Of a DNA stretch of 64,000 nt, positions 11,507 to 40,934 are shown piece by piece (position 1 is the stretch's first letter; the number at the start of each line of letters is the position of its first letter). The translations under genes were made by a program, and so were the position numbers. Source of the stretch: Arthrobacter yangruifuii (GTDB taxonomy: Bacteria > Actinomycetota > Actinomycetes > Actinomycetales > Micrococcaceae); the NCBI RefSeq assembly GCF_009192775.1, contig NZ_VTFX01000004.1, forward strand, positions 310,001 through 374,000, in the 5' to 3' direction. The notes under the pieces are model-generated. The model was not told where the DNA came from. It searched no databases and saw only the letters and a program-made list of their open reading frames with translations.

Positions 11507-11633
11507 GATGAATCTCCTCGTTAACGAATCTGGTTTCCATTCTGCCATTACTGGCCGGAAACCCTTTCACATATTGCACCGGCGGTCCGGGGCAATCAGG
11601 TTCTCTGGCGGGCGGACGCAGGATCCGCGGGTC

Positions 11634-12370
11634 CTACTTGGTGTCGGTGGGGTCCTCGCCGCGGGTCAGCCGGTCCCAGCTGTCGATCTCGTCGACGGGC
11701 GGGCCTGCTGCTGAGTCCTTGCCCGGGTCTGCCGGGGCGGCCGCGGTGGTTCCGGGGCGGGAGCCCGCAGCGGACCCGGTGCGCCGGGCATCCGTGTCCG
11801 GGGCGTCCGTACCGGCGCCGTCAGTACCGGCGTCCGTCGTACCGGCGTCGGTCCCGGCGGCGCCGGGCTCGGCAGCCGGGGCGTAACGGCGCGACGTCGT
11901 CCAGTACCGGCCAGCGAGGGCCAGCCAGATGCCGGCCAGGGCAATCAGGATCCCGATGACCACTGCGGCGTACGGCATGGCTGTCAGTTCCGCTACGGTG
12001 CCTTCGGCGGAACTCACGCCGATGGCCTTGCCGATGGCGCCGGCGGCACCCTGCAGGGGGTCGCTGATGATCCGGTAGCTGGACACGGCTACACCTACCC
12101 CGGAGACCGTGACAATGACGGCAATGATCCAGCGGGCAATCCGGCCGGCTATTCCGGCCGCCAGAGCGGCAGCCACACCCACCACGGCGAAGGCCGTGAC
12201 GGCGGTGGCAGCATCACTGCCGGAGACGGCGACGTCGGGCGTCACCACACCCGTGGCGGGCAGGGTGACGTTGAGCCAGGTACGGGTGGTGGTGCCGAAG
12301 GCCAGGGCTGCCAGCAGGACGGTCCCCATGATGACGGTGCCCTTGCGGCCCCAGCGGGGGGTGGTGGTGC

Positions 12371-12374
<4 letters not shown>
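11634..12374 (-). CDS. Trp biosynthesis-associated membrane protein
   Basis: A 246-residue membrane protein with four hydrophobic segments in the first 160 residues (the first at about 12-30, then pairs near 55-95 and 130-152). A long, low-complexity cytoplasmic-type tail follows, with repeated Ala-Gly-Thr-Asp units (for example AGTDAGTTDAGTDGAGTDA). The family occurs next to trpE/trpC in many actinobacteria; the function is not established. It starts 4 nt inside trpE, showing coupling. The tail repeats are reflected in the DNA and may vary in length between strains. Confidence 0.85.
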
Positions 12375-13945
<1,571 letters not shown>

Positions 13946-13986
13946 GTTTTTCTACTTCTTCCCTGCGTTGGTGGTGGAGCGGGGTC

Positions 13987-14373
13987 TTAGGCGGCGCCGA
14001 CGACGGCGGGCAGCTCACGGCCGTCGAAGCAGGTGCGGGTGCCTGTGTGGCAGGCGGCGCCTACCTGGTCTACACGGATCAGGAGGGCGTCGCCGTCACA
14101 GTCCAGGGCCACGGACTTCACCCACTGCACATGCCCGGAGGTATCCCCCTTGCGCCAGTACTCCTGCCGGGAGCGGGACCAGAAGGTCACCCGTCCGGAG
14201 GTCAGGGTGCGGTGCAGTGCCTCGTCATCCATCCAACCGAGCATGAGGACCTGGTTGGTATCGAACTGCTGGACGACGGCGGCCACCAGGCCGGCGTCGT
14301 CGCGCTTGAGTGCCGCCGCGAGCTCCGGATCGAGGACAGCCGGCGGATTCTGGGGGGAAGGTGTGGGAAGCAT
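13987..14373 (-). CDS. hisI: Phosphoribosyl-AMP cyclohydrolase
   Basis: Histidine-pathway enzyme opening the adenine ring of phosphoribosyl-AMP. Family motifs are [30 protein letters not shown] and the metal-binding [11 protein letters not shown]...[12 protein letters not shown]. At 128 residues it is the monofunctional form; the partner hisE is a separate gene at 37101-37364. It heads the hisI-trpE-trpC-trpB-trpA-lgt transcript and is divergent from the gene at 14474. Confidence 0.96.
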
Positions 14374-23158: not shown

Positions 23159-26100
23159 TTAGTCCCCGGCCCAACCGATAAACGGTGACCCCTGTGGGTA
23201 AGTATTCCTAAAGATAGAACCTTGATCATTGATTCTATTCTCAATCGCTTGCCCCCACGTCTCAGCAGGCTGGCCTTTGTTTTTCCCTCGGGGCACAGGG
23301 AAACGCTCGCCCACTTCTGGTTTCTCAAAAGGGTCAGAGTGATGATGGACATGAGCATAAAGGGGATTATCCGTCGCGCGTGCGGCCAGCACTCGCCTAT
23401 GGTCCAGTGTCGTGTACCCGCCGTCAGGCATGATGACAACGTCCGCAGGATCCAGGTCCCTTGTCCAGCCATGCTCGGCCATGTTATCAATTCGGTTTTG
23501 CAAGTCCTTGACACTTCGCTGACTGAAACGCACATCGGCAGGGTCAAGCACAGTTACCGGAAAGTCTCCAAGTTTTTTGTACGGCAGCCCTCCTATAGGC
23601 GCCGCGCTCGTGGCCCCGCCTGTTGCGGCGGCTCTCAACGCACCCGAGGCTGTATGCGGACCCGGACCGTTGTAATAGTCCCCCGCCCCGGTAATTGCCC
23701 CTTCTACCCCATTCTCCACGGCCATCCGGATCACGGGATTGCTGACCATCCTGCCTGCGATCATTCCCACGCCGGCGCCGGCCATACCCAGACCGCCGGA
23801 AATTCCGGCCTGGACCCAGTTCACGTCCCCCGTGGTGGCTTTCTGGATGACGACGTCGGCACCAAAGCTGATCAGACCGGCGCCGAAGACCTGGCCGCCG
23901 GGAACAAACATCAGAGCCGTCCCGCCGATGATCGCGGCACCGCCGACAATGTATTCCCAGTTGTCCTTAACCCAGTCCCCTGCAGCTGCCAGCATGCCGC
24001 GGTTGGCCGCGTCGTAGGCCTTCAAATCCTCATCGGTCAGCGGACGCAGACCCGTAGGGTCACTGGCGTTCAGCGGATTATTGCCCGCATAGGAGTACGG
24101 GTTGCCGTCCCAGCCGGCGCCCAGGACCGGCGACAGCGGGTCGGTGGAGAGGAAACCACGGGCTGTCGGGTCATACGCCCGGGCGCCCAGCCACTCCAAG
24201 CCAGCAACATCCAGGCCGCCGTTACCGGTCAGACCGATGCCGGCCGGCGAACCGCCGGCCATCACACCAGCGCCGGACATAGCACCCGTTCCGGACACGG
24301 CACCCGGCTCCGGAATGACCGAGGCACCCAGCACCGCCCACGGATCAGCCTGGTCCGTTGCCCGGGCAGCACGCCACCCCGGAGCGATCCACGCCTCACT
24401 GATCCCGGTCACCCCGCCGGGCAGGCTCACCACCTGCTCCTCACCGACGCCGGCCAGCGTGGGAATGGGGTTCGCACTGTCCCACCACACCGGGCAGCCG
24501 TCCACCGCCGCCAGCTCGCCCAGGGCATCTACCCACAAGCGGTGCCGGGCTGTTTCGGCGCCGTCCGGGGTGCGGTCCACGGTTCCGTGCAGGTACCCGG
24601 TCTCGCCCCAGGCGTATTCGGTCCAGGACCCGTCCGCGCGAATCAGCCGCGACCTCCGGCCAAGCCCGTCGTAGACATATTCCGTCCGGGACCCGTCCGG
24701 CTCGATGACGGAGGTCAGTTCACCGGCAACGTCATAGGCATACAGCCGCGAACCAGCGGGTGTGAACTCGCGGACCAGCCGGCCGCCGGCGTCGTACTCC
24801 CACTCCGAAACCTGCGCGCGGGCGGTGGCCGCGGCATCCGACTTCCCCACAGGCGTGGTGGCAGCAGCCACGAGCTGGCCTGCCCCGTCGTAGCCGTACC
24901 GGGTCACGGCACCGGCACGGGTCAGACCCGTTATCCGGCCGTCCTCATCCCGGCCGATCATCGTGATATCTGCAGGACTGTCGGTATCACCCCGGTTGGT
25001 GCGCGTGTGTTCGGCCAGGTAGCCGTTGCGGTACGCCCATTCCTGGACCAGGTCCCCGGCCATGACAGCGGTCAGCCGGCCGGAGGCGTCATGGGTGAAC
25101 TGCGCTGACCCCAGCCGGGGGTTGTGCACTGTCCTGATCCGGCCGGCTGCGTCCCGGGCATAGGTGGTGGTGGTCCCGGCGGTGTCAGTGAAGGACGAAC
25201 GGTTCCCGTCGGCGTCATAGGACCATGACATGCCTTCGGCGCCTCGGGCGCGGGAAGTCAGCTGGCCCCGGCGGTTGAAGCCGAGTTCATGCTCGACCGT
25301 CAGCCCGTCGTCCCCGGTGAAGTCGGTGACCACCACCCGCCGGTTCATCCGGTCGCGGTCCACCGATGCCAGCAACCTCCCGTTCCACGAGGTGCTCTGC
25401 TCCCGGCCTGCCGCGTCATACGTCCAGGTGGTGGTGTTTCCGTCCGGGTCGGTCTGGGAGAGCTGCCGTCCCGCCGGATCATAGGTGGCCGTGGTGACCC
25501 GGCCCAGCGGATCACTAACCGAATCCACCTTATCCGTCTCGGTATAGGTGCGGGCGGTCACCCCGCCCAGCGGATCGGTGATCCGGATCAGCCGGCCGCG
25601 GACGTCGTACTCGAACCGGGTCCGCCCGCCCACACCGTTGACGGTTTCGGTCAGTTCCCCGGCCACGTTGTAGCGGAAACGCCGCGTCCCGTACCAGGAA
25701 TCCTGCGAGAAACTCAGCCGTCCCGCCTTGTCATACCCGTAGCGGGCATTGCCGCGGCCCGGCGTGACGCGCAGGATGAGCCGGCCGCAGGCATCGTACT
25801 CGAACGTCTCCGTCTCCCCCGTGGGAAGGATCCGGGCCGTGACGCGCTGATCGGCGTCGTAAACCAGTTCCGTGACAGCACCTAGCGGGTCGATGGTCTT
25901 CCACGGCCGGCCGCAGACATCGTACTCGTACCGGGTCACAGCCCCGGAGGGCGAGGTCACCGAAGTGATTTTCCCGGCGGGGTCGCGTTCCAGGCGGGTC
26001 AGCCCGCCTTCGCCGTCGAGCAGTTCCACGGGGTTGCCGGCGGCGTCATAGGTGGTCAGTTCCGCGGACCCGTCTGCGGCTTCGGCACGCACCGGGCGGC

Positions 26101-28792
26101 CGTATTCGTCGAAGCTGTAGGTCGAGGAGGAGAACGCATCCGCGACGGTGGCAGTGCCTGCCCCGCGGTCGGTCACGGTATCGGAGCGCACGCCGGTGGG
26201 GTCGACGACGGCGGTGAGGTTGCCGACCTTGTCGTACTCCCGGATCCAGTCGTGCCCGGCCGGGTCGGTGATGCCGGTCAGCCGGGAGAGCGTGTCATGG
26301 GTGAAGCCCCAGCGGGCACCATCGGGCAGGATCGCCGCGGTGACGTTGCCCAGTTCATCGAAGACCCGCTCAATGGCCCGGCTGAGCGGGTCAATGGTTC
26401 GGACCAGTTCCCCGTTGGCCGCGTATTCCAGTGCGGTCCGGCCCCCATCGGGGGCGACGGAGGCGGTGAGCCGCCCGGCGGCGTCGTACTCGAAGGCCCA
26501 GACTGCACCATCCGGGTCTTCGCGCCGGACCAGCAGGCCCGCAGTGTCATATGTGAAGCGGGTCTCCGCGCCCGAGGGAGTGATCGAGGCAACTGGGCGG
26601 CCGGCAGAATCGCGCACTATCCGTGCCGTGTCACCGAGGGCGTTGCGTGTCGCAATCAGGTCGCCGTAGTTGTCATAGTCGAACTCAACGGATACCCCGG
26701 CCGGGTCCGTGACCCGGGTTAGGAGTCCGTGGTCCCAGGTCAGTTCGGTGCGGCCGCCCAGCGGATCCTCGATCACTGACGGGTCCCGGGTGAACTCATC
26801 GCCGTATTCGTAGCTGACGACGGACCCGGATTCGGTGACCAGGGTGGTGATCCGGTCCTGCTCATCCCAGCCGTAGGTCAGGTCCGCCCCCTCGGGCGTG
26901 ACGGTACGGATCTTCCGGCCCCGGTCATCGTAGGCGTGCACGGTAACGGACCCGTCCCGTTCAGTGAGGGACACCAGGTTGCCGTGCCGGTCATAGGCCA
27001 TGGACTGACGCTGGTCATGCGAATCCAGCACCCCGACCAGCCGGCCCTTGGGATCGGCGATCCAGGAGTTGGAGCGGGTGCCGTCTTCATCCGAAACCAC
27101 GGTGACCCGGCCTGAGAGGTAGGCGAAGCGGGTGCGGCGGCCGTGCTGGGTGACCTGCAGGATTACCCGGCCCTGCTCGTCATAGGTGTTCTCCGCTTCC
27201 AGCACACCGGCGGCAGAGTAAACGGCGTCGATCAGCCCCTGCTCGTTCCACCGGTAGGAGCGGGTGCCGGTCTCGGTAGTGACCGACACGAGGCGGCCGG
27301 CGTCGTTGTACCCGTATTCGGCCCGGCGCCCGTCCGAGGCCCGGACGACGACGGCACGGCCGCCCACGTAGTCGACGTCCAGGAACCGGCCGCGCACATG
27401 GGACAGGCGGGTTACTTGGCCGGCGCCGTCGTCGGTGTCTGCCCATGCCATCGGCTCCCGGTGGACAGAGACTGTCCGGCCGGGACCGGACCCGGCTCCG
27501 AGCCAGACCCCGGACAGGCTATACGCCCACCAACCGCCCTGGTTGTCCCGGACCACCAGCAGGTCCGTGCTGTCCTCAGGCAGGGATGCCAGTTCCGCGA
27601 GTACTCCCACGGTGGCCGGTTCGCGGGTCAACCAGTAGCTCTCCCCCACCGCCCGTCCCCAGATCTCGCCCTCGCGGGGGAAATCCACGGCCCGGCCGTC
27701 AGCCACGATCCACCGGCAGCCCTCATCCGAGAGCACCAGCTGCTGGTCCAGGACCGAGGACCAGCCCGGACCGAAGACACCGGAAGCCTCCTGCGGCGCC
27801 AGAGAGTTGTACATCCGGGACAGAACCAGGTTCGAGGCGGTGCCCGCGAATCCGAGGTCCGTTTCCGGCTCCACGAAGTTACCCGTGGCCGTGTTCACCG
27901 GGTCATTGGCGTACCCGGTGGTCGGGACCGCGCCGTAGGCTGTGGGCGGGTCAATCTTCAGTCCATCGCGGGTCGCATCCACGCCCGCAGCGGCGAGGGC
28001 GGCCGCCAGCGCAGCGTCAGAAACCGTTGAGACGTTGCCTTCTCCTCCGGCCTTGGCGAAATTATCCGCCAGAGTCAGCGCCCACTGTGCATCATTCTCG
28101 TTGGCATCCAGATAGGCCCTATAGGCAGTCATCACCCCATCCGCCTCGATCCGTCCCCATCCGCAGCGGGCCGCGAAGTCAGTTAGGTGTCCCTCCAGCA
28201 TGCCGGGCACGGCGGTCAGGGCGTCATCCAGGGAACGGGAATTTGTTGCGAACGTGCGCAGGTTCTGCGGCCGTGCCGAGGACGTGCCGCCGCTGCCTCC
28301 CATTCCGGGCTGGGTGTCCCGGGACCCCACGGAAGCCGTGGTCGAATCAAACGTGGGAGCCGGGCCCCGTTCGGCGTTGGGCCGCTCTTCCCCGCCCCCG
28401 AATGCATCCCCGATACGCTCGGCAAGATCGCGTTCGTTTTGCCGCCGGACCCACTCGTTGTTCTCCCTGCGGCGGGCGTCCTCCTCCCGCGCTGCACGGA
28501 TCATCGTCCCCACATAGTCGGCAACAGTGCCCAGCGCCTGTGCCAATGCCTGCGCATCATTGGCCGCCGTGTCAGCATTGGCCTGGAACACCTCGGAGAA
28601 GAACCCCGCGAAATCCTCCTTCGCCGCGGATACATACGACGTCCGCGACGCTGCTTGATCGGTCAGACGAGAAGCTTCGGCCCTGAATGCGGACCTCATT
28701 GCCACCGCCACACCGTAATCAAACCGGCCCCGGGAATCCTCCGGCAACAACGGCACCTCAACGAAACGATCTTCCAACCCAAACATGCGCAA
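23159..28792 (-). CDS. RHS/YD-repeat polymorphic toxin
   Basis: A 1877-residue secreted-type toxin. Residues 1-120 are helical, resembling WXG/LXG export domains. A Gly/Ser-rich linker follows. A DUF6531-like start of the cage lies near residue 295 (NDPVNTATGNFVEPETDLGF). Dozens of YD repeats (for example YDAAGRLTASV, GYDKAGRLSFS) run to about residue 1500. The RHS core end is at about 1530-1590 (GARAYDPTARGFLSTDPL). A hydrophobic pre-toxin segment (NWEYIVGGAAIIGG) leads to a tip at about 1741-1877. The tip has DVRFSQRSVKDLQNRI, then VVIMPDGGYTTLDHRRVLAA, which looks like a ParB-fold-type toxin. There is no signal peptide; export by a type VII (ESX-like) system is inferred from the WXG100 gene upstream. 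Confidence 0.9.
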   Translation of the reverse strand: MRMFGLEDRFVEVPLLPEDSRGRFDYGVAVAMRSAFRAEASRLTDQAASRTSYVSAAKEDFAGFFSEVFQANADTAANDAQALAQALGTVADYVGTMIRAAREEDARRRENNEWVRRQNERDLAERIGDAFGGGEERPNAERGPAPTFDSTTASVGSRDTQPGMGGSGGTSSARPQNLRTFATNSRSLDDALTAVPGMLEGHLTDFAARCGWGRIEADGVMTAYRAYLDANENDAQWALTLADNFAKAGGEGNVSTVSDAALAAALAAAGVDATRDGLKIDPPTAYGAVPTTGYANDPVNTATGNFVEPETDLGFAGTASNLVLSRMYNSLAPQEASGVFGPGWSSVLDQQLVLSDEGCRWIVADGRAVDFPREGEIWGRAVGESYWLTREPATVGVLAELASLPEDSTDLLVVRDNQGGWWAYSLSGVWLGAGSGPGRTVSVHREPMAWADTDDGAGQVTRLSHVRGRFLDVDYVGGRAVVVRASDGRRAEYGYNDAGRLVSVTTETGTRSYRWNEQGLIDAVYSAAGVLEAENTYDEQGRVILQVTQHGRRTRFAYLSGRVTVVSDEDGTRSNSWIADPKGRLVGVLDSHDQRQSMAYDRHGNLVSLTERDGSVTVHAYDDRGRKIRTVTPEGADLTYGWDEQDRITTLVTESGSVVSYEYGDEFTRDPSVIEDPLGGRTELTWDHGLLTRVTDPAGVSVEFDYDNYGDLIATRNALGDTARIVRDSAGRPVASITPSGAETRFTYDTAGLLVRREDPDGAVWAFEYDAAGRLTASVAPDGGRTALEYAANGELVRTIDPLSRAIERVFDELGNVTAAILPDGARWGFTHDTLSRLTGITDPAGHDWIREYDKVGNLTAVVDPTGVRSDTVTDRGAGTATVADAFSSSTYSFDEYGRPVRAEAADGSAELTTYDAAGNPVELLDGEGGLTRLERDPAGKITSVTSPSGAVTRYEYDVCGRPWKTIDPLGAVTELVYDADQRVTARILPTGETETFEYDACGRLILRVTPGRGNARYGYDKAGRLSFSQDSWYGTRRFRYNVAGELTETVNGVGGRTRFEYDVRGRLIRITDPLGGVTARTYTETDKVDSVSDPLGRVTTATYDPAGRQLSQTDPDGNTTTWTYDAAGREQSTSWNGRLLASVDRDRMNRRVVVTDFTGDDGLTVEHELGFNRRGQLTSRARGAEGMSWSYDADGNRSSFTDTAGTTTTYARDAAGRIRTVHNPRLGSAQFTHDASGRLTAVMAGDLVQEWAYRNGYLAEHTRTNRGDTDSPADITMIGRDEDGRITGLTRAGAVTRYGYDGAGQLVAAATTPVGKSDAAATARAQVSEWEYDAGGRLVREFTPAGSRLYAYDVAGELTSVIEPDGSRTEYVYDGLGRRSRLIRADGSWTEYAWGETGYLHGTVDRTPDGAETARHRLWVDALGELAAVDGCPVWWDSANPIPTLAGVGEEQVVSLPGGVTGISEAWIAPGWRAARATDQADPWAVLGASVIPEPGAVSGTGAMSGAGVMAGGSPAGIGLTGNGGLDVAGLEWLGARAYDPTARGFLSTDPLSPVLGAGWDGNPYSYAGNNPLNASDPTGLRPLTDEDLKAYDAANRGMLAAAGDWVKDNWEYIVGGAAIIGGTALMFVPGGQVFGAGLISFGADVVIQKATTGDVNWVQAGISGGLGMAGAGVGMIAGRMVSNPVIRMAVENGVEGAITGAGDYYNGPGPHTASGALRAAATGGATSAAPIGGLPYKKLGDFPVTVLDPADVRFSQRSVKDLQNRIDNMAEHGWTRDLDPADVVIMPDGGYTTLDHRRVLAARATDNPLYAHVHHHSDPFEKPEVGERFPVPRGKNKGQPAETWGQAIENRINDQGSIFRNTYPQGSPFIGWAGD

Positions 28793-37100: not shown

Positions 37101-37364
37101 CTAGAGATGCTTGTAGACGTCCTGCAGGGTCAGGCCTTTAGCGAGCATCAGGACCTGGAGGTGGTACAGCAGCTGGGAAATTTCTTCGGCGCATTCGGCA
37201 TCGGATTCGTATTCGGCGGCCATCCAGACTTCGGCGGCTTCCTCAACAACCTTCTTACCGATGCCATGCACGCCCGACTCGAATTCGGCCACGGTGCGTG
37301 ACCCGGCGGGGCGGTCCTGAACTTTCCGGCTCAGCTCGGCAAAGAGGTCTTCGAAGGTTTTCAC
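37101..37364 (-). CDS. hisE: Phosphoribosyl-ATP pyrophosphatase
   Basis: An 87-residue all-helical MazG-like enzyme removing pyrophosphate from phosphoribosyl-ATP. [19 protein letters not shown] carries the metal-binding EExxE pattern, and [15 protein letters not shown] the second helix. Stand-alone form, matching the stand-alone hisI. First gene of hisE-hisG-hisF. In several actinobacteria ribH follows hisE directly on the other side; here a 24-kb block intervenes. Confidence 0.96.
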
Positions 37365-37590
37365 ATGGTCAAGGGTACGCCGTGGCGCGGTGTGGAACGG
37401 AATCGTGGGGCGTGGTGTGACGGTCGTCGAGGGGCAGTTATCGACACGAAGCTCGTCTGACCTCTGTCTTGAAGTCTCGCATCAGCCACGTGCTGCTCCG
37501 CAACTCAAGGCTCTTCCGCAATTACCGAAGTGGATATATCGTCAGCCGGGACTTGCCAATTCTTGAAGCCTAAGTGTTAGGGGTGGCGAT

Positions 37591-39828
37591 ATGACAGGGA
37601 CTATGAAGCACGCGGTGGTGGTGGGCGTTGACGGATATCTTCATGCACCTCCCCTCCGCGGATGCGTAAATGATGCTGGCGACATAGCTGAGTGCCTAAG
37701 TCTCGAGCAATACGATTTCGACGTAACTACGCTGTTTAATCGTGATGCTACTCGTTCAAATATTCTCGAAGCGCTTGGCCAAATTGCCTATGGATCCGTC
37801 AGTGGCGACACCCTACTATTTTACTTCGCTGGGCATGGTGCTGTCGTGGGCAATTCCGGTCACCTCGTCACGCACGACGCAACAACCTTCGACCCGGGCC
37901 TGTCCCTTTCTCACCTGTCAGACATCATGGAGTCTGCCAGCCACTACTTTACAAACGTTGTAACTATACTCGACTGCTGCCACGCAGGTTCGGCACCCAT
38001 ATGGACACATAGCCGCGTCATGGCAGCCTCTGATATCGAACGGGAGTTACGCGTAGTAAATTCAAGCCGCAGCATTCTGGGTGCATGCACGGCGGACGAT
38101 ACGGCCAAAGAACATGCTGACCCAGCACGGGGTGTCTTCACAGAGGCTCTCGTCCAGGGACTGCTGGGCGATGCCGTGAACTTCGAAGGTGAGGTTACGC
38201 TCCTACACCTGCACGAATACGTTTCACGAGCGGTAGATCCTCTATACCAAACACCTGTTTTTAAGGGCGACCTCACAGGGACCGTCGTCTTGGGTAAGGG
38301 CTTCGAACCCCGTCGTGGAGCTCCCATCGCTGTGGATGATCGCCGGCGCATCCTTGCGAAGGCCCAACTTCTAATGGATAAGCACTTCGAACTACAAAAC
38401 CGGGAACTTTTTGAGAAAGAAACACGAATCCACGGAGGCAGTCGACGCTGCGCCAAGGACCTCGAAGGAGTGGTTCGATGGTTTGAAGACACACAAGTAA
38501 GTCTGCCTGACCTTGGACGCGAGCCAGATTGGAGGCGACTCTACGATTCCATGCTCGACGCACAACGGAGGGTATCCGAAGTGGTGCAGGGTGAGGAGAC
38601 CGCCGTTGGAACCCTTGTCCGTAAGATTGGTCAAGGTGGATTCGGCCAGGTGTGGGAGGTCAAGACGCCCTCCGGCGAATCAGCGGCCCTGAAGATCTTT
38701 CACGGTGGAGAACTGCATGATCAGGTGAAGGCGGCACGCTTCCGCAATGGCTTTCAGAACATGCGCAAACTCCAGCATCCGAATATTGTTGGAGTATCCT
38801 CAATGACCCTGGCTCCGCTCGCATTCGTCATGGAATATGTTCCGGGGCCCGACCTAAGAGACTTCTATGTTGATCGTTCCGAGGTCGAACCAATGGTTCA
38901 ACTTGTACGGGACATCGCGGAGACTTTAGTTCATGCCCACCACCATAAGGTGCGACATCGAGACATTAAGCCCGAGAACATTATTGTTGTACAAGACCTA
39001 TACGGCAATTTGACCCCCCATCTCACGGACTTTGACCTCGCCTACCACGAAACTAACCGCACGGTCACAACGAACCTCGGAGTAGGGGGAGTAATCAACT
39101 ATGCGGCTCCGGAACAGCTCTACGAACCCAATGCTGGCACATCACGGGAAGTCACAGTCGATGTTTACAGTCTCGGCCAACTCATGTACTTCATCTTTGT
39201 CGGAACCGATCCTAGCGGGGAGAACCAGCAAAGAAATACAAAGGAATTACGGAGGGTGCTCTCCGAGTGGACGGACGAACGAGCTGCGAAAATAATATTG
39301 GAACTATATGGCGCCTCGACGGCACGGAACCCCAAGGACCGTCCAGCTAGCGTCAGTGAAGTCGTCGGACAGCTTTCCCTTGCATTGGGTTACATCCAAG
39401 CCGCGAGCGGGACGAACATTATCGAACGCGCAAACTTCTGCAACCGTATCGCCTATTTGTATGGCGGATTAGATATCCATGACGGTAGTCGATTCGACGA
39501 AAACATCGCAATTAGAAGCAAGTCTGGACAAATTGACATTCAGCTAGCACTACGTGAGGAAACCGGTAAGGGCAACTCAGGACTCGAATTGCGTTTCGCC
39601 GTAGAGCGACTATCTCTCACGGATATAAGTTCTTCATCTAACGCCCGGAATGCGCTCAATCAACGTCTCGATAAGGTGGCTTCTCGCTTCCCGGGGGCAT
39701 CGCGCAGGAATGGTAAGCACGGCCAGTATGAAGTATTTATTGATATGAAATCGGTTCCGCTTTCTGTTGAGGGGGCAGCGACGGTCAGAGAACTAATTTC
39801 GGATGCAATCGGAGCGATCGAAAGATGA
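37591..39828 (+). CDS. Caspase-like protease fused to a Ser/Thr protein kinase
   Basis: A 745-residue three-part protein. Residues 5-235 form a caspase-like (C14) domain: VVVGVDGY, the catalytic His82 in YFAGHG and Cys130 in ILDCCHAGS. Residues 255-330 are a charged linker. Residues 338-600 form a complete kinase: GQGGFGQV (347-354), Lys368 in AALK, HRDIKPEN (456-463, Asp458), DFD in place of DFG (480-482), APE (506-508) and DVYSLG (524-529). Residues 605-745 are a domain I do not recognise. There is no membrane helix, so it should act in the cytoplasm. AGGGGTGG precedes the ATG. The gene is AT-richer than its neighbours and stands alone, which suggests transfer. A conflict or defence role is inferred. 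Confidence 0.88.
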   Translation: MTGTMKHAVVVGVDGYLHAPPLRGCVNDAGDIAECLSLEQYDFDVTTLFNRDATRSNILEALGQIAYGSVSGDTLLFYFAGHGAVVGNSGHLVTHDATTFDPGLSLSHLSDIMESASHYFTNVVTILDCCHAGSAPIWTHSRVMAASDIERELRVVNSSRSILGACTADDTAKEHADPARGVFTEALVQGLLGDAVNFEGEVTLLHLHEYVSRAVDPLYQTPVFKGDLTGTVVLGKGFEPRRGAPIAVDDRRRILAKAQLLMDKHFELQNRELFEKETRIHGGSRRCAKDLEGVVRWFEDTQVSLPDLGREPDWRRLYDSMLDAQRRVSEVVQGEETAVGTLVRKIGQGGFGQVWEVKTPSGESAALKIFHGGELHDQVKAARFRNGFQNMRKLQHPNIVGVSSMTLAPLAFVMEYVPGPDLRDFYVDRSEVEPMVQLVRDIAETLVHAHHHKVRHRDIKPENIIVVQDLYGNLTPHLTDFDLAYHETNRTVTTNLGVGGVINYAAPEQLYEPNAGTSREVTVDVYSLGQLMYFIFVGTDPSGENQQRNTKELRRVLSEWTDERAAKIILELYGASTARNPKDRPASVSEVVGQLSLALGYIQAASGTNIIERANFCNRIAYLYGGLDIHDGSRFDENIAIRSKSGQIDIQLALREETGKGNSGLELRFAVERLSLTDISSSSNARNALNQRLDKVASRFPGASRRNGKHGQYEVFIDMKSVPLSVEGAATVRELISDAIGAIER

Positions 39829-39971
39829 CAAATTTGTGACTTATGTCTAGGACCCACTACGTGTTCGAGCGTGGGCGCAGACCTGTTGCTCACTACCCTG
39901 GCGGGTCCTGGACGACTCTTCGAGTGGCAGAGCAAAAGAACGACGACGAGGCACCCGCATGCAGTTCATGT

Positions 39972-40010
39972 ATGGCTCTACCACCGACCGAAGGGCAGCG
40001 GTAGAGCCAT
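39972..40010. repeat. Inverted repeat after the caspase-kinase gene
   Basis: ATGGCTCTACC at 39972-39982 and its exact complement GGTAGAGCCAT at 40000-40010 flank a 17-nt loop, 144 nt after the stop of the caspase-kinase gene. No U-run follows. It may be a terminator or an insertion scar. The 311-bp gap 39829-40139 otherwise contains nothing I recognise; no direct repeats bracketing the gene were found by eye. Confidence 0.4.
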
Positions 40011-40139
40011 TGAGGGCCAGGCGGTCTCCCCCCGGTACATTTCGTGCGGTACGGGGTGGAGGCCCGCGGGCGCCGGGGCTTTGTTCAGCAAGGACTACGT
40101 GGGCTACGTCCTGCCGCTAGACGCGGCGTATGCTGAGCT

Positions 40140-40934
40140 ATGGAATCCGAGGTGCGGAATCTTCCGCTTTACACCGGCATCACGGTGCCCTGCCTCGTCC
40201 AGGGCGACGCCGATGCACCGCCGGTACTGCTGCTGCACGCCTGGGCCGAATCCCGCCGGAGCTTCGACCGGCTGGTGCCCCGACTGGCCGGCTTCCGGAT
40301 TTACGCCCCCGATCTCCGCGGCCAAGGCGATGCCGACAAACCGCAGGACGGATACTCACTGGCAGAACAAGCCCAGGATGCCGCCGCTGTTCTAGATGCG
40401 CTGGAGGTGCCGACGGCTTCGGTCCTTGGGTCCTCGAGCGGCGGTTATGTGGCCCAGCAGCTGGCCGTTGCGCACCCCGACCGGGTGGCGGCGCTCGTGC
40501 TGGTGGCCGCTCCCTTGACCCTCCAGGGCCAACCCCCTTTCGCCGAATACGTCGACAACCTGACGGATCCGGTCGCCGAGGACTGGGTGCGCGGTTTCCT
40601 CGCCTCGTTTCCCCTGATTCAGGAGGTTCCTGCACGGTTCATCGAGGACCGGGTGACCGACGGCGTAAAGATGCCCGCGTACGCGTGGAAGCTTAGCCTT
40701 CGCGGTTTGTACACGGCAGCTCCGCCCACCGAAACCGGATCCATCTCCGTTCCCACGCTGATCCTGCGGGGTGGGCAGGACGGCCTGCTGCCCCGCGCGG
40801 ACCAGGACACCCTGGCCGCCAAAATTGACGGCGCAGAACTGAAGATCTATCCCGATGCCGCCCACTTGGTCTTGTGGGAATGCCCGGACCAGGTGGCAGC
40901 GGATGCGGCGGCGTTCCTGAGTTCTCTCGCTTGA
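40140..40934 (+). CDS. Alpha/beta-fold hydrolase
   Basis: A 264-residue soluble hydrolase. PPVLLLHAWAESRRSFDRLV forms the oxyanion region, DLRGQGDADKP follows, and the nucleophile serine lies in VLGSSSGGYVAQQ. The acid and base are probably the Asp in LRGGQDGLLP and the His in DAAHLVLWE. Helical cap sequence lies between. The substrate is unknown; sequence style is that of esterase, lactonase or haloperoxidase-like enzymes. No close operon partner. Confidence 0.85.
   Translation: MESEVRNLPLYTGITVPCLVQGDADAPPVLLLHAWAESRRSFDRLVPRLAGFRIYAPDLRGQGDADKPQDGYSLAEQAQDAAAVLDALEVPTASVLGSSSGGYVAQQLAVAHPDRVAALVLVAAPLTLQGQPPFAEYVDNLTDPVAEDWVRGFLASFPLIQEVPARFIEDRVTDGVKMPAYAWKLSLRGLYTAAPPTETGSISVPTLILRGGQDGLLPRADQDTLAAKIDGAELKIYPDAAHLVLWECPDQVAADAAAFLSSLA

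What the first reader, a model, noticed from the sequence alone, without database searches (positions are those of the whole stretch)
37591..39828. Single-gene caspase-kinase fusion, candidate defence or programmed-death protein
The sequence shows an intact caspase-like domain (His82 in YFAGHG, Cys130 in DCCHAGS) in front of a complete Ser/Thr kinase (Lys368, HRDIKPEN, APE) and an unrecognised 140-residue C-terminus. Established knowledge: bacterial caspase-like proteases and Ser/Thr kinases both occur as effectors or sensors in phage defence and other conflict systems. Inference: one domain may control the other, for example protease activation releasing the kinase, or kinase signalling arming the protease, with the C-terminal domain as sensor. 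The gene is AT-richer than its neighbours, has no partner gene, and lies in a variable block between two conserved operons. The DFD in place of DFG may alter kinase regulation.
Basis: partly seen in the sequence, partly recalled or inferred. Interest (0 to 1): 0.85.

Follow-up and report, generated by a model that had tools for sequence, protein, structure and literature searches.

The report
Caspase-kinase fusion, likely phage defence
This bacterium carries a rare, probably acquired gene that joins a caspase-like protein-cutting enzyme to an unusual kinase and a probable protein-binding tail, and it sits where some related species keep known anti-virus genes, so it may be a one-protein self-destruct defence against viruses.

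The parts
37591..39828 (+). caspase - helical linker - atypical kinase - C-terminal alpha/beta domain fusion gene, 745 aa
   Evidence: ORF; Pfam; full-length relatives
37606..38277 (+). caspase-like (Peptidase_C14) domain, residues 6-229; His82 at 37834-37836, Cys130 at 37978-37980
   Evidence: Pfam E 1.3e-21; His82 and Cys130 invariant in 4 of 4 members
38323..38595 (+). conserved linker, residues 245-335, predicted helical
   Evidence: about 40% identical among three members; helices in a low-confidence full-length AlphaFold2 model; its profile found the fourth member
38611..39393 (+). protein-kinase domain, residues 341-601: Lys368, HRD Asp458, Asn463 and Asp480 kept; Gly387 for the alphaC Glu, DFD for DFG, Val501 at P+1
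   Evidence: Pfam; comparison with 7 other kinases of the same genome; four-member alignment
39403..39825 (+). C-terminal domain, residues 605-745, predicted type III secretion chaperone-like fold
37423..40121 (.). species-specific insert between hisE and the hydrolase gene; left DNA homology to 20 sister loci stops at 37384-37428, right homology starts at 40113-40124 in the 12 loci where the hydrolase gene is near
   Evidence: blastn against 20 sister loci; interval contents
37101..37364 (-). hisE, conserved left flank
   Evidence: found in 29 of 29 genus genomes
40140..40934 (+). alpha/beta hydrolase gene, right flank
   Evidence: Pfam Abhydrolase_1 2e-31; found in the stretch fetched beside hisE in 12 of 28 sister genomes, a 27-residue match in L110 not counted
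39972..40010 (.). inverted repeat (18-nt arms, 83% complementary) downstream of the gene, possible terminator

Best explanation
A mobile, single-gene immune protein that acts by abortive infection with the caspase as output (the stated confidence is for this core). Shown: an intact caspase-type protease domain, a conserved linker, a kinase-fold domain with a family-wide non-canonical active site, and a C-terminal domain predicted to have a secretion-chaperone-like fold; sporadic presence; a position used by known defence systems in a few sister species. Inferred: the C-terminal domain detects an infection-derived polypeptide or changes its pairing; the kinase-fold domain, as an unusual kinase or as an ATP-binding switch, passes the change through the linker; the caspase is released and cuts cell or phage proteins, stopping the infected cell. 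It would thus do in one chain what type IV Thoeris does with two genes, a TIR enzyme whose signal molecule switches on a caspase.
For: Domain content and catalytic residues in 4 of 4 members. Present in 1 of 29 genus genomes and in none of 28 sister loci, with the lowest GC3 of 37 window ORFs: probable acquisition. The spot beside hisE holds Lamassu LmuA/B/C (E 2e-137, 1.5e-175, 1e-83), HEC-06/GmrSD (E 2e-68) and HEC-04 (E 1e-198) in 3 of 28 sister genomes, and a weaker AAA ATPase scoring to NsnB, AriA, GajA and Old models (best E 1e-20) in a fourth. The Actinomadura relative lies among IS110 and rve-integrase transposases and NikA/MobC and relaxase genes. Nearest outside caspases found: 20 of 20 loci of that clade have a ThsB-type TIR gene (19 of 20 when only TIR queries from other loci count; the remaining one, L140, is annotated as a TIR gene), against 0 of 46 other caspase loci. 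A starred branch (100/99) puts the fusions, the TIR-linked caspases and nine others apart from the remaining 35 caspases. Passages of PMC12847820 state that type IV Thoeris uses N7-cADPR to activate a caspase-like protease that degrades cell proteins. Fold of the C-terminus.
Against: No activity or phage assay exists. Ten neighbours of the window gene (2) and of its relatives (8) gave no PADLOC match; the G312 and G307 copies lie among apparently ordinary genes. In the caspase tree the window, Actinomadura and G312 caspases form their own clade and are not nested within the TIR-linked clade; the fork joining them is unresolved, and the G307 caspase falls elsewhere on a very long branch. The hisE spot also takes up metabolic genes (sugar-transport-like genes in L112, L114, L120); of 18 interval proteins that I chose and scanned, 11 had no PADLOC match, and I ran no control on other chromosomal spots. 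The C-terminal fold rests on a three-sequence model; Foldseek gave no E below 0.025 and profile comparison with YbjN failed. The control of caspase by kinase is not shown by any data here.
Confidence: 0.6

Rival explanations
1. The kinase is the output and the caspase is its processing switch: on a signal the caspase cuts the linker and frees an active kinase that phosphorylates host targets and halts growth. This is the auto-proteolysis idea proposed by Kaur et al. 2020 for caspases with variable C-terminal domains.
For: PMC7159879 section 33 proposes that the EACC1 sensor activates the constant caspase, which facilitates effector deployment via auto-proteolysis, and lists signalling enzymes among the fused domains. 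The caspase domain scores E 8e-23 to the EACC1-associated caspase model. Lys368, Asp458, Asn463 and Asp480 are kept.
Against: The family-wide loss of the alphaC Glu, of the DFG Gly and (3 of 3) of the P+1 Thr argues against an ordinary Ser/Thr kinase output. The model score, 81 bits, is under the 140-bit cut-off, and no EACC1-like gene was seen upstream in the window.
Confidence: 0.17
2. A developmental or stress-signalling protein of the actinobacterial cell (regulated proteolysis with kinase control) without a role against phage.
For: Two relatives (G312, G307) sit in apparently ordinary chromosomal context, and no PADLOC family was found among 10 neighbours scanned. GC and position suggest transfer, not function. 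Actinobacteria are rich in kinases (general knowledge).
Against: Rarity (family found in 3 of 394 class genomes by the linker profile; C-terminal domain alone 2 of 394), absence from 28 of 29 genus genomes, and position beside hisE, where 3 of 28 sister species have known or candidate defence systems.
Confidence: 0.15
3. A selfish stabilisation or toxin-like gene of a mobile element, with the caspase as poison and the kinase or C-terminal domain as built-in antidote.
For: Transposase and relaxase neighbours of the Actinomadura copy.
Against: Single gene; the window insert holds no other gene of note and no direct repeat at its two borders was found.
Confidence: 0.06

Closest known systems
Type IV Thoeris (TIR + caspase-like protease; Rousset et al. 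2025, seen only as cited in passages of PMC12847820)
   Same: Closest outside caspase relatives found (28-36% identity over roughly residues 4-289) are stand-alone caspases directly behind ThsB-type TIR genes
   Different: No TIR gene at 0 of 4 fusion loci; a kinase domain and a chaperone-like domain are fused to the caspase instead; separate clade in the caspase tree. I have no direct proof that the TIR-caspase pairs found here are the published type IV system; the match is by gene order and domain.
EACC1-caspase 'System 4' (Kaur et al. 2020, PMC7159879; passages and section 33 read)
   Same: N-terminal caspase followed by up to 50 different C-terminal domains, signalling enzymes among them, prevalent in actinobacteria. 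The passages I read do not say whether protein kinases are among those domains, so the bare caspase-kinase fusion may already be on their list.
   Different: Below the NCBIfam cut-off of caspase_w_EACC1 (81 against 140 bits); no EACC1-like membrane gene upstream in the window; no transmembrane segment by a simple hydropathy scan
MAD6 and PD-T4-6 antiphage kinases, PknB-type kinases
   Same: Kinase domain matches MAD6, PD-T4-6 and PknB models at E 1e-34 to 2e-37
   Different: Far below the MAD6 and PknB curated cut-offs (123 against 460 and 119 against 450 bits); Gly387, DFD and Val501 depart from the canonical pattern
Type III secretion chaperones / YbjN / DR_1245 fold
   Different: No detectable sequence relation to two small YbjN alignments; no secretion system implied

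Membership tests
Peptidase C14 (caspase-like) | Caspase domain over the Pfam cut-off with His/Cys dyad | tested here: met
   77.8 bits against 21.4; His82 and Cys130 invariant in 4 of 4
Type IV Thoeris | TIR gene in the same operon | tested here: not met
   tblastn with nine TIR queries: 0 of 4 fusion loci (the whole window, L031, L036, L132), 20 of 20 TIR-caspase loci
Type IV Thoeris | Caspase lies within the TIR-linked caspase clade | tested here: not met
   Separate clades, 100/99 and 98/99; the fork joining them is unresolved
Type IV Thoeris | Activation by N7-cADPR | not testable with these tools
   needs biochemistry
EACC1-caspase System 4 | Caspase over the NCBIfam NF047832 cut-off | tested here: not met
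   81.0, 73.8, 69.6 and 47.4 bits in the four members against 140
EACC1-caspase System 4 | Upstream EACC1 gene with one transmembrane helix | tested here: not met
   In the window only ORFs of 58 aa or less overlap 37365-37590, none evidently hydrophobic by eye; the same-strand upstream ORF of L031 has no Pfam match; small upstream ORFs of L036 and L132 were not scanned
Canonical Ser/Thr protein kinase | Lys, HRD Asp, Asn and DFx Asp catalytic residues | tested here: met
   Kept in 4 of 4
Canonical Ser/Thr protein kinase | alphaC Glu, DFG Gly, P+1 Thr/Ser | tested here: not met
   Gly, Asp, Val in 3 of 3 members; Glu, Gly, Thr in 7 of 7 other kinases of the genome that were compared; the fourth member also has Gly at alphaC and DFD, with a gap at P+1
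MADS kinase MAD6 | NCBIfam NF047741 cut-off | tested here: not met
   123.4 bits against 460
Type III secretion chaperone / YbjN fold | Fold match over the whole domain | tested here: inconclusive

The most novel reading that the evidence does not exclude
A previously undescribed antiphage family: a one-protein caspase in which an atypical, possibly non-catalytic kinase fold works as an in-cis activation switch and a secretion-chaperone-like domain captures a phage or host polypeptide, replacing the diffusible TIR signal of type IV Thoeris. It would be the first case known to me of a kinase fold directly gating a caspase within one bacterial immune protein.
Probability: 0.4. Interest if true: 0.78.

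Novelty: new variant of a known kind. Interest (0 to 1): 0.6.

Why it matters
Caspases in animals are switched on by large assemblies (general knowledge), and in type IV Thoeris by a small molecule made by a TIR enzyme. A single chain that joins protease, kinase fold and likely sensor would be a compact, testable model of how phosphotransfer folds can gate caspases in immunity. The conserved loss of the alphaC Glu and of the DFG Gly in a kinase that keeps its other catalytic residues poses a clear question: signalling enzyme or ATP-binding switch? The hisE spot may also help to find more defence genes in this genus.

Tried and rejected
Wider family search: relatives are very rare in what I could search. 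Viral contigs gave no full-length member (none; 19 loci, caspase part only, query residues 1-299). Plasmids: 548 records match some part, 0 cover 80%, and the C-terminal domain has no match. Phages: 30 records, 0 covering 80%. The single genome-contig scan used only two peptide patterns, so it has low recall; 24 loci, 1 full-length. C-terminal profile in the phylum: 3 of 396 genomes, the window's own among them; the other two are weak (E 1.7e-4 and 4.5e-4), one in a histidine-kinase-like ORF and one in a 134-aa frame, and I judged both spurious. The genus and order of G312 gave only G312 (1 of 8; 1 of 35). The kinase-profile search (3 of 394, all fusions) used a strict 1e-45 limit and scored at most 6 candidates a genome, so it does not show that DFD kinases occur only in these fusions.

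Full-length AlphaFold2 model: mean pLDDT 52.6, not used beyond secondary structure. Membership of the C-terminus in YbjN: not supported (the pooled six-sequence YbjN alignment A8 mixed two groups and was replaced by two alignments of three). The PDB sequence search with the C-terminus gave nothing. A direct-repeat or att-like border of the insert was not found. In one search two control kinases (L003, L008) were read on the wrong strand; one search repeats it with both corrected and is the one cited. Of eight other kinase matches, the eighth had no locus and was not compared. The caspase of the fourth member (L132) has a very long branch (3.58) and could not be placed with the other fusions; it may be of separate origin. 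In one search the 17 of 46 comparison loci that came from the genome search carry only 1.5 kb of flank each, and L078 was left out of both the tree and the comparison.

Hot spot: of 18 interval proteins that I picked by eye and scanned with PADLOC, 7 had a match: five in L108, L111 and L117, the L151 ATPase and an L118 methyltransferase-like protein that scores to mad2 (E 1e-19), which I take as a generic match. My notebook gave 13 sister genomes with a nearby hydrolase gene; recounting one search gives 12, and 12 is used here.

Literature: searches showed no listed title or abstract start on a caspase-kinase single-protein defence family; most subscription papers are not in this library, so it may be in print. 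Passages only were seen of PMC8195603, PMC4933709, PMC12847820 and PMC13373217; passages and section 33 of PMC7159879; everything else as search listings.

Full report
Observation. The gene is as described: ATG at 37591, stop ending at 39828, 745 aa, with a caspase domain at residues 6-229 (E 1.3e-21) and a kinase domain at 343-555 (E 2e-32), both over Pfam's cut-offs, and no match for the last 140 residues. A GGGGTGG stretch precedes the ATG. GC3 is 0.536, the lowest of 37 ORFs chosen in the window (others mean 0.780). On the left hisE runs the other way; on the right an alpha/beta hydrolase gene begins 311 bp after the stop.

A family with fixed architecture. A C-terminal search of 394 genomes of the class found one more genome, G312; its gene has the same four parts and is 47% identical end to end. 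The one genome-contig scan gave a third member in Actinomadura sp. 6K520 (50%). A profile of the linker between caspase and kinase found a divergent fourth, G307 (28%), so that 3 of 394 class genomes hold the family by this profile. In 4 of 4, His82, Cys130, Lys368, Asp458, Asn463 and Asp480 are kept. The linker itself is about 40% identical among the first three, so it is a conserved part and not a loose tether.

An atypical kinase. Compared with seven other kinases of the same genome, all of which have the alphaC Glu, DFG and the P+1 Thr, the window, G312 and Actinomadura proteins have Gly387, DFD and Val501; G307 shares the Gly and the DFD. The other nucleotide- and metal-binding residues remain. 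From general knowledge of kinases, loss of the alphaC Glu usually disables the normal active state; so this is either a kinase with a different mechanism or an ATP-binding switch. Nothing here decides between them.

Where the gene sits. Of 29 genomes in the genus only this one has the caspase part, and 0 of 28 sister loci hold any part of the gene in the stretch of 8-9 kb fetched beside hisE. DNA homology to 20 sister loci stops at window 37384-37428 on the left and resumes at 40113-40124 in the 12 where the hydrolase gene is near. The distance from hisE to the hydrolase gene is 587 bp to 7.8 kb in the 12 of 28 genomes where both lie in the fetched stretch, and the content differs between most species (three, L112, L114 and L120, share one set). 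Beside hisE, 3 of 28 carry PADLOC-recognised systems: all three Lamassu genes in L108, HEC-06/GmrSD in L111 and HEC-04 in L117; a fourth, L151, has an OLD/Gabija-like ATPase with weaker scores. I scanned 10 proteins of 7 loci and 8 proteins of 7 loci, chosen by eye; 11 of the 18 had no match, and the rest of the interval content looks metabolic or short by eye. The spot is therefore an insertion site that sometimes holds defence genes; I made no comparison with other spots.

Other members' surroundings. The Actinomadura copy lies between IS110- and rve-type transposases and NikA/MobC and relaxase genes. The G312 and G307 copies lie among apparently ordinary genes. Ten neighbours, two in the window and eight beside the relatives, gave no PADLOC match. 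I saw no neighbour shared between members, by eye.

Link to TIR-caspase immunity. The two caspases of the same bacterial family that matched best after the window itself (E 6e-27 and 4e-23) are 328-aa proteins directly behind a ThsB-type TIR gene (Pfam ThsB_TIR 1.3e-9 and 3.8e-9). Two of the TIR proteins (L010, L138) also match PADLOC's ThsB (1.5e-7 and 3.7e-7). Six plasmid loci chosen from the hits show the same order; five are annotated as TIR genes, and the sixth, unnamed, is 88% identical to an annotated one. In all, 20 of 20 loci of this caspase group have the TIR gene; with queries from other loci only, 19 of 20, the last being annotated as TIR. It is absent at 0 of 46 loci with other caspases and 0 of 4 fusion loci, in the sense that no TIR match was found there. 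In a tree of 68 caspase domains the three close fusions form one clade (100/99) and the TIR-linked caspases another (98/99); a starred branch (100/99) holds both with G307 and nine others apart from the other 35; how they join within that set is unresolved, and the fourth fusion is too divergent to place. [quoted passage not shown]

Mechanism. I commit to this: a soluble protein (no transmembrane segment in the window, G312 and Actinomadura copies by hydropathy; G307 has a borderline stretch near its chosen start), a single-protein caspase effector held inactive by the linker, kinase fold and C-terminal domain, and released when the C-terminal domain meets an infection-derived polypeptide; the result is abortive infection by proteolysis. 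Shown: parts, residues, rarity, atypical composition, position. Inferred: a defence role (about 0.75), caspase as its output (about 0.6), kinase fold as in-cis switch (about 0.45), C-terminal domain as sensor (about 0.45). The main rival makes the kinase the output freed by self-cleavage, as Kaur et al. 2020 propose for caspases with variable tails; the altered kinase site speaks against it.

Novelty. The parts are known, caspase-based immunity is known, and caspases with many fused C-terminal domains are known from Kaur et al. 2020 (the text that I read does not say whether kinases are among them). The fixed combination with a conserved atypical kinase and a chaperone-like tail, without TIR or EACC1 partner, is to my knowledge undescribed. 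My literature searches listed no description, within the limits of an open-access library. I therefore call it a new variant of a known kind.

Noticed in passing
L108 (G007) beside hisE: Complete Lamassu system (LmuA, LmuB, LmuC) at the same chromosomal spot in a sister species.
   Followed up: yes
L117 (G028) beside hisE: HEC-04 ATPase (PADLOC E 1e-198) next to an unrecognised 245-aa gene, possibly a two-gene defence system.
   Followed up: partly
L122:6005-7843 (G016): 613-aa protein beside hisE with a weak AAA match and, by eye, a STAND/NACHT-like look; no PADLOC match. Candidate new defence gene at the same spot.
   Followed up: partly
L113 (G018), L118 (G010), L116 (G009) beside hisE: Further species-specific genes without PADLOC or Pfam matches (a probable membrane protein in L116, a 366-aa protein in L113, a 214-aa protein in L118) at the insertion spot.
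   Followed up: partly
L138 (Paenarthrobacter plasmid pYJN5-2): A TIR-caspase pair followed, about 1.7 kb downstream, by a second TIR gene on a conjugative plasmid, with a tyrosine recombinase gene nearby.
   Followed up: no
window 23162-28792 (-): 1877-aa RHS-repeat protein (27 RHS repeat stretches, DUF6531), a possible polymorphic contact-system protein.
   Followed up: no
L036 (Actinomadura) 11618-14218 (-): An 866-aa ORF that looks by eye like an alanyl-tRNA synthetase, close to mobilisation genes, perhaps a second, mobile copy.
   Followed up: no
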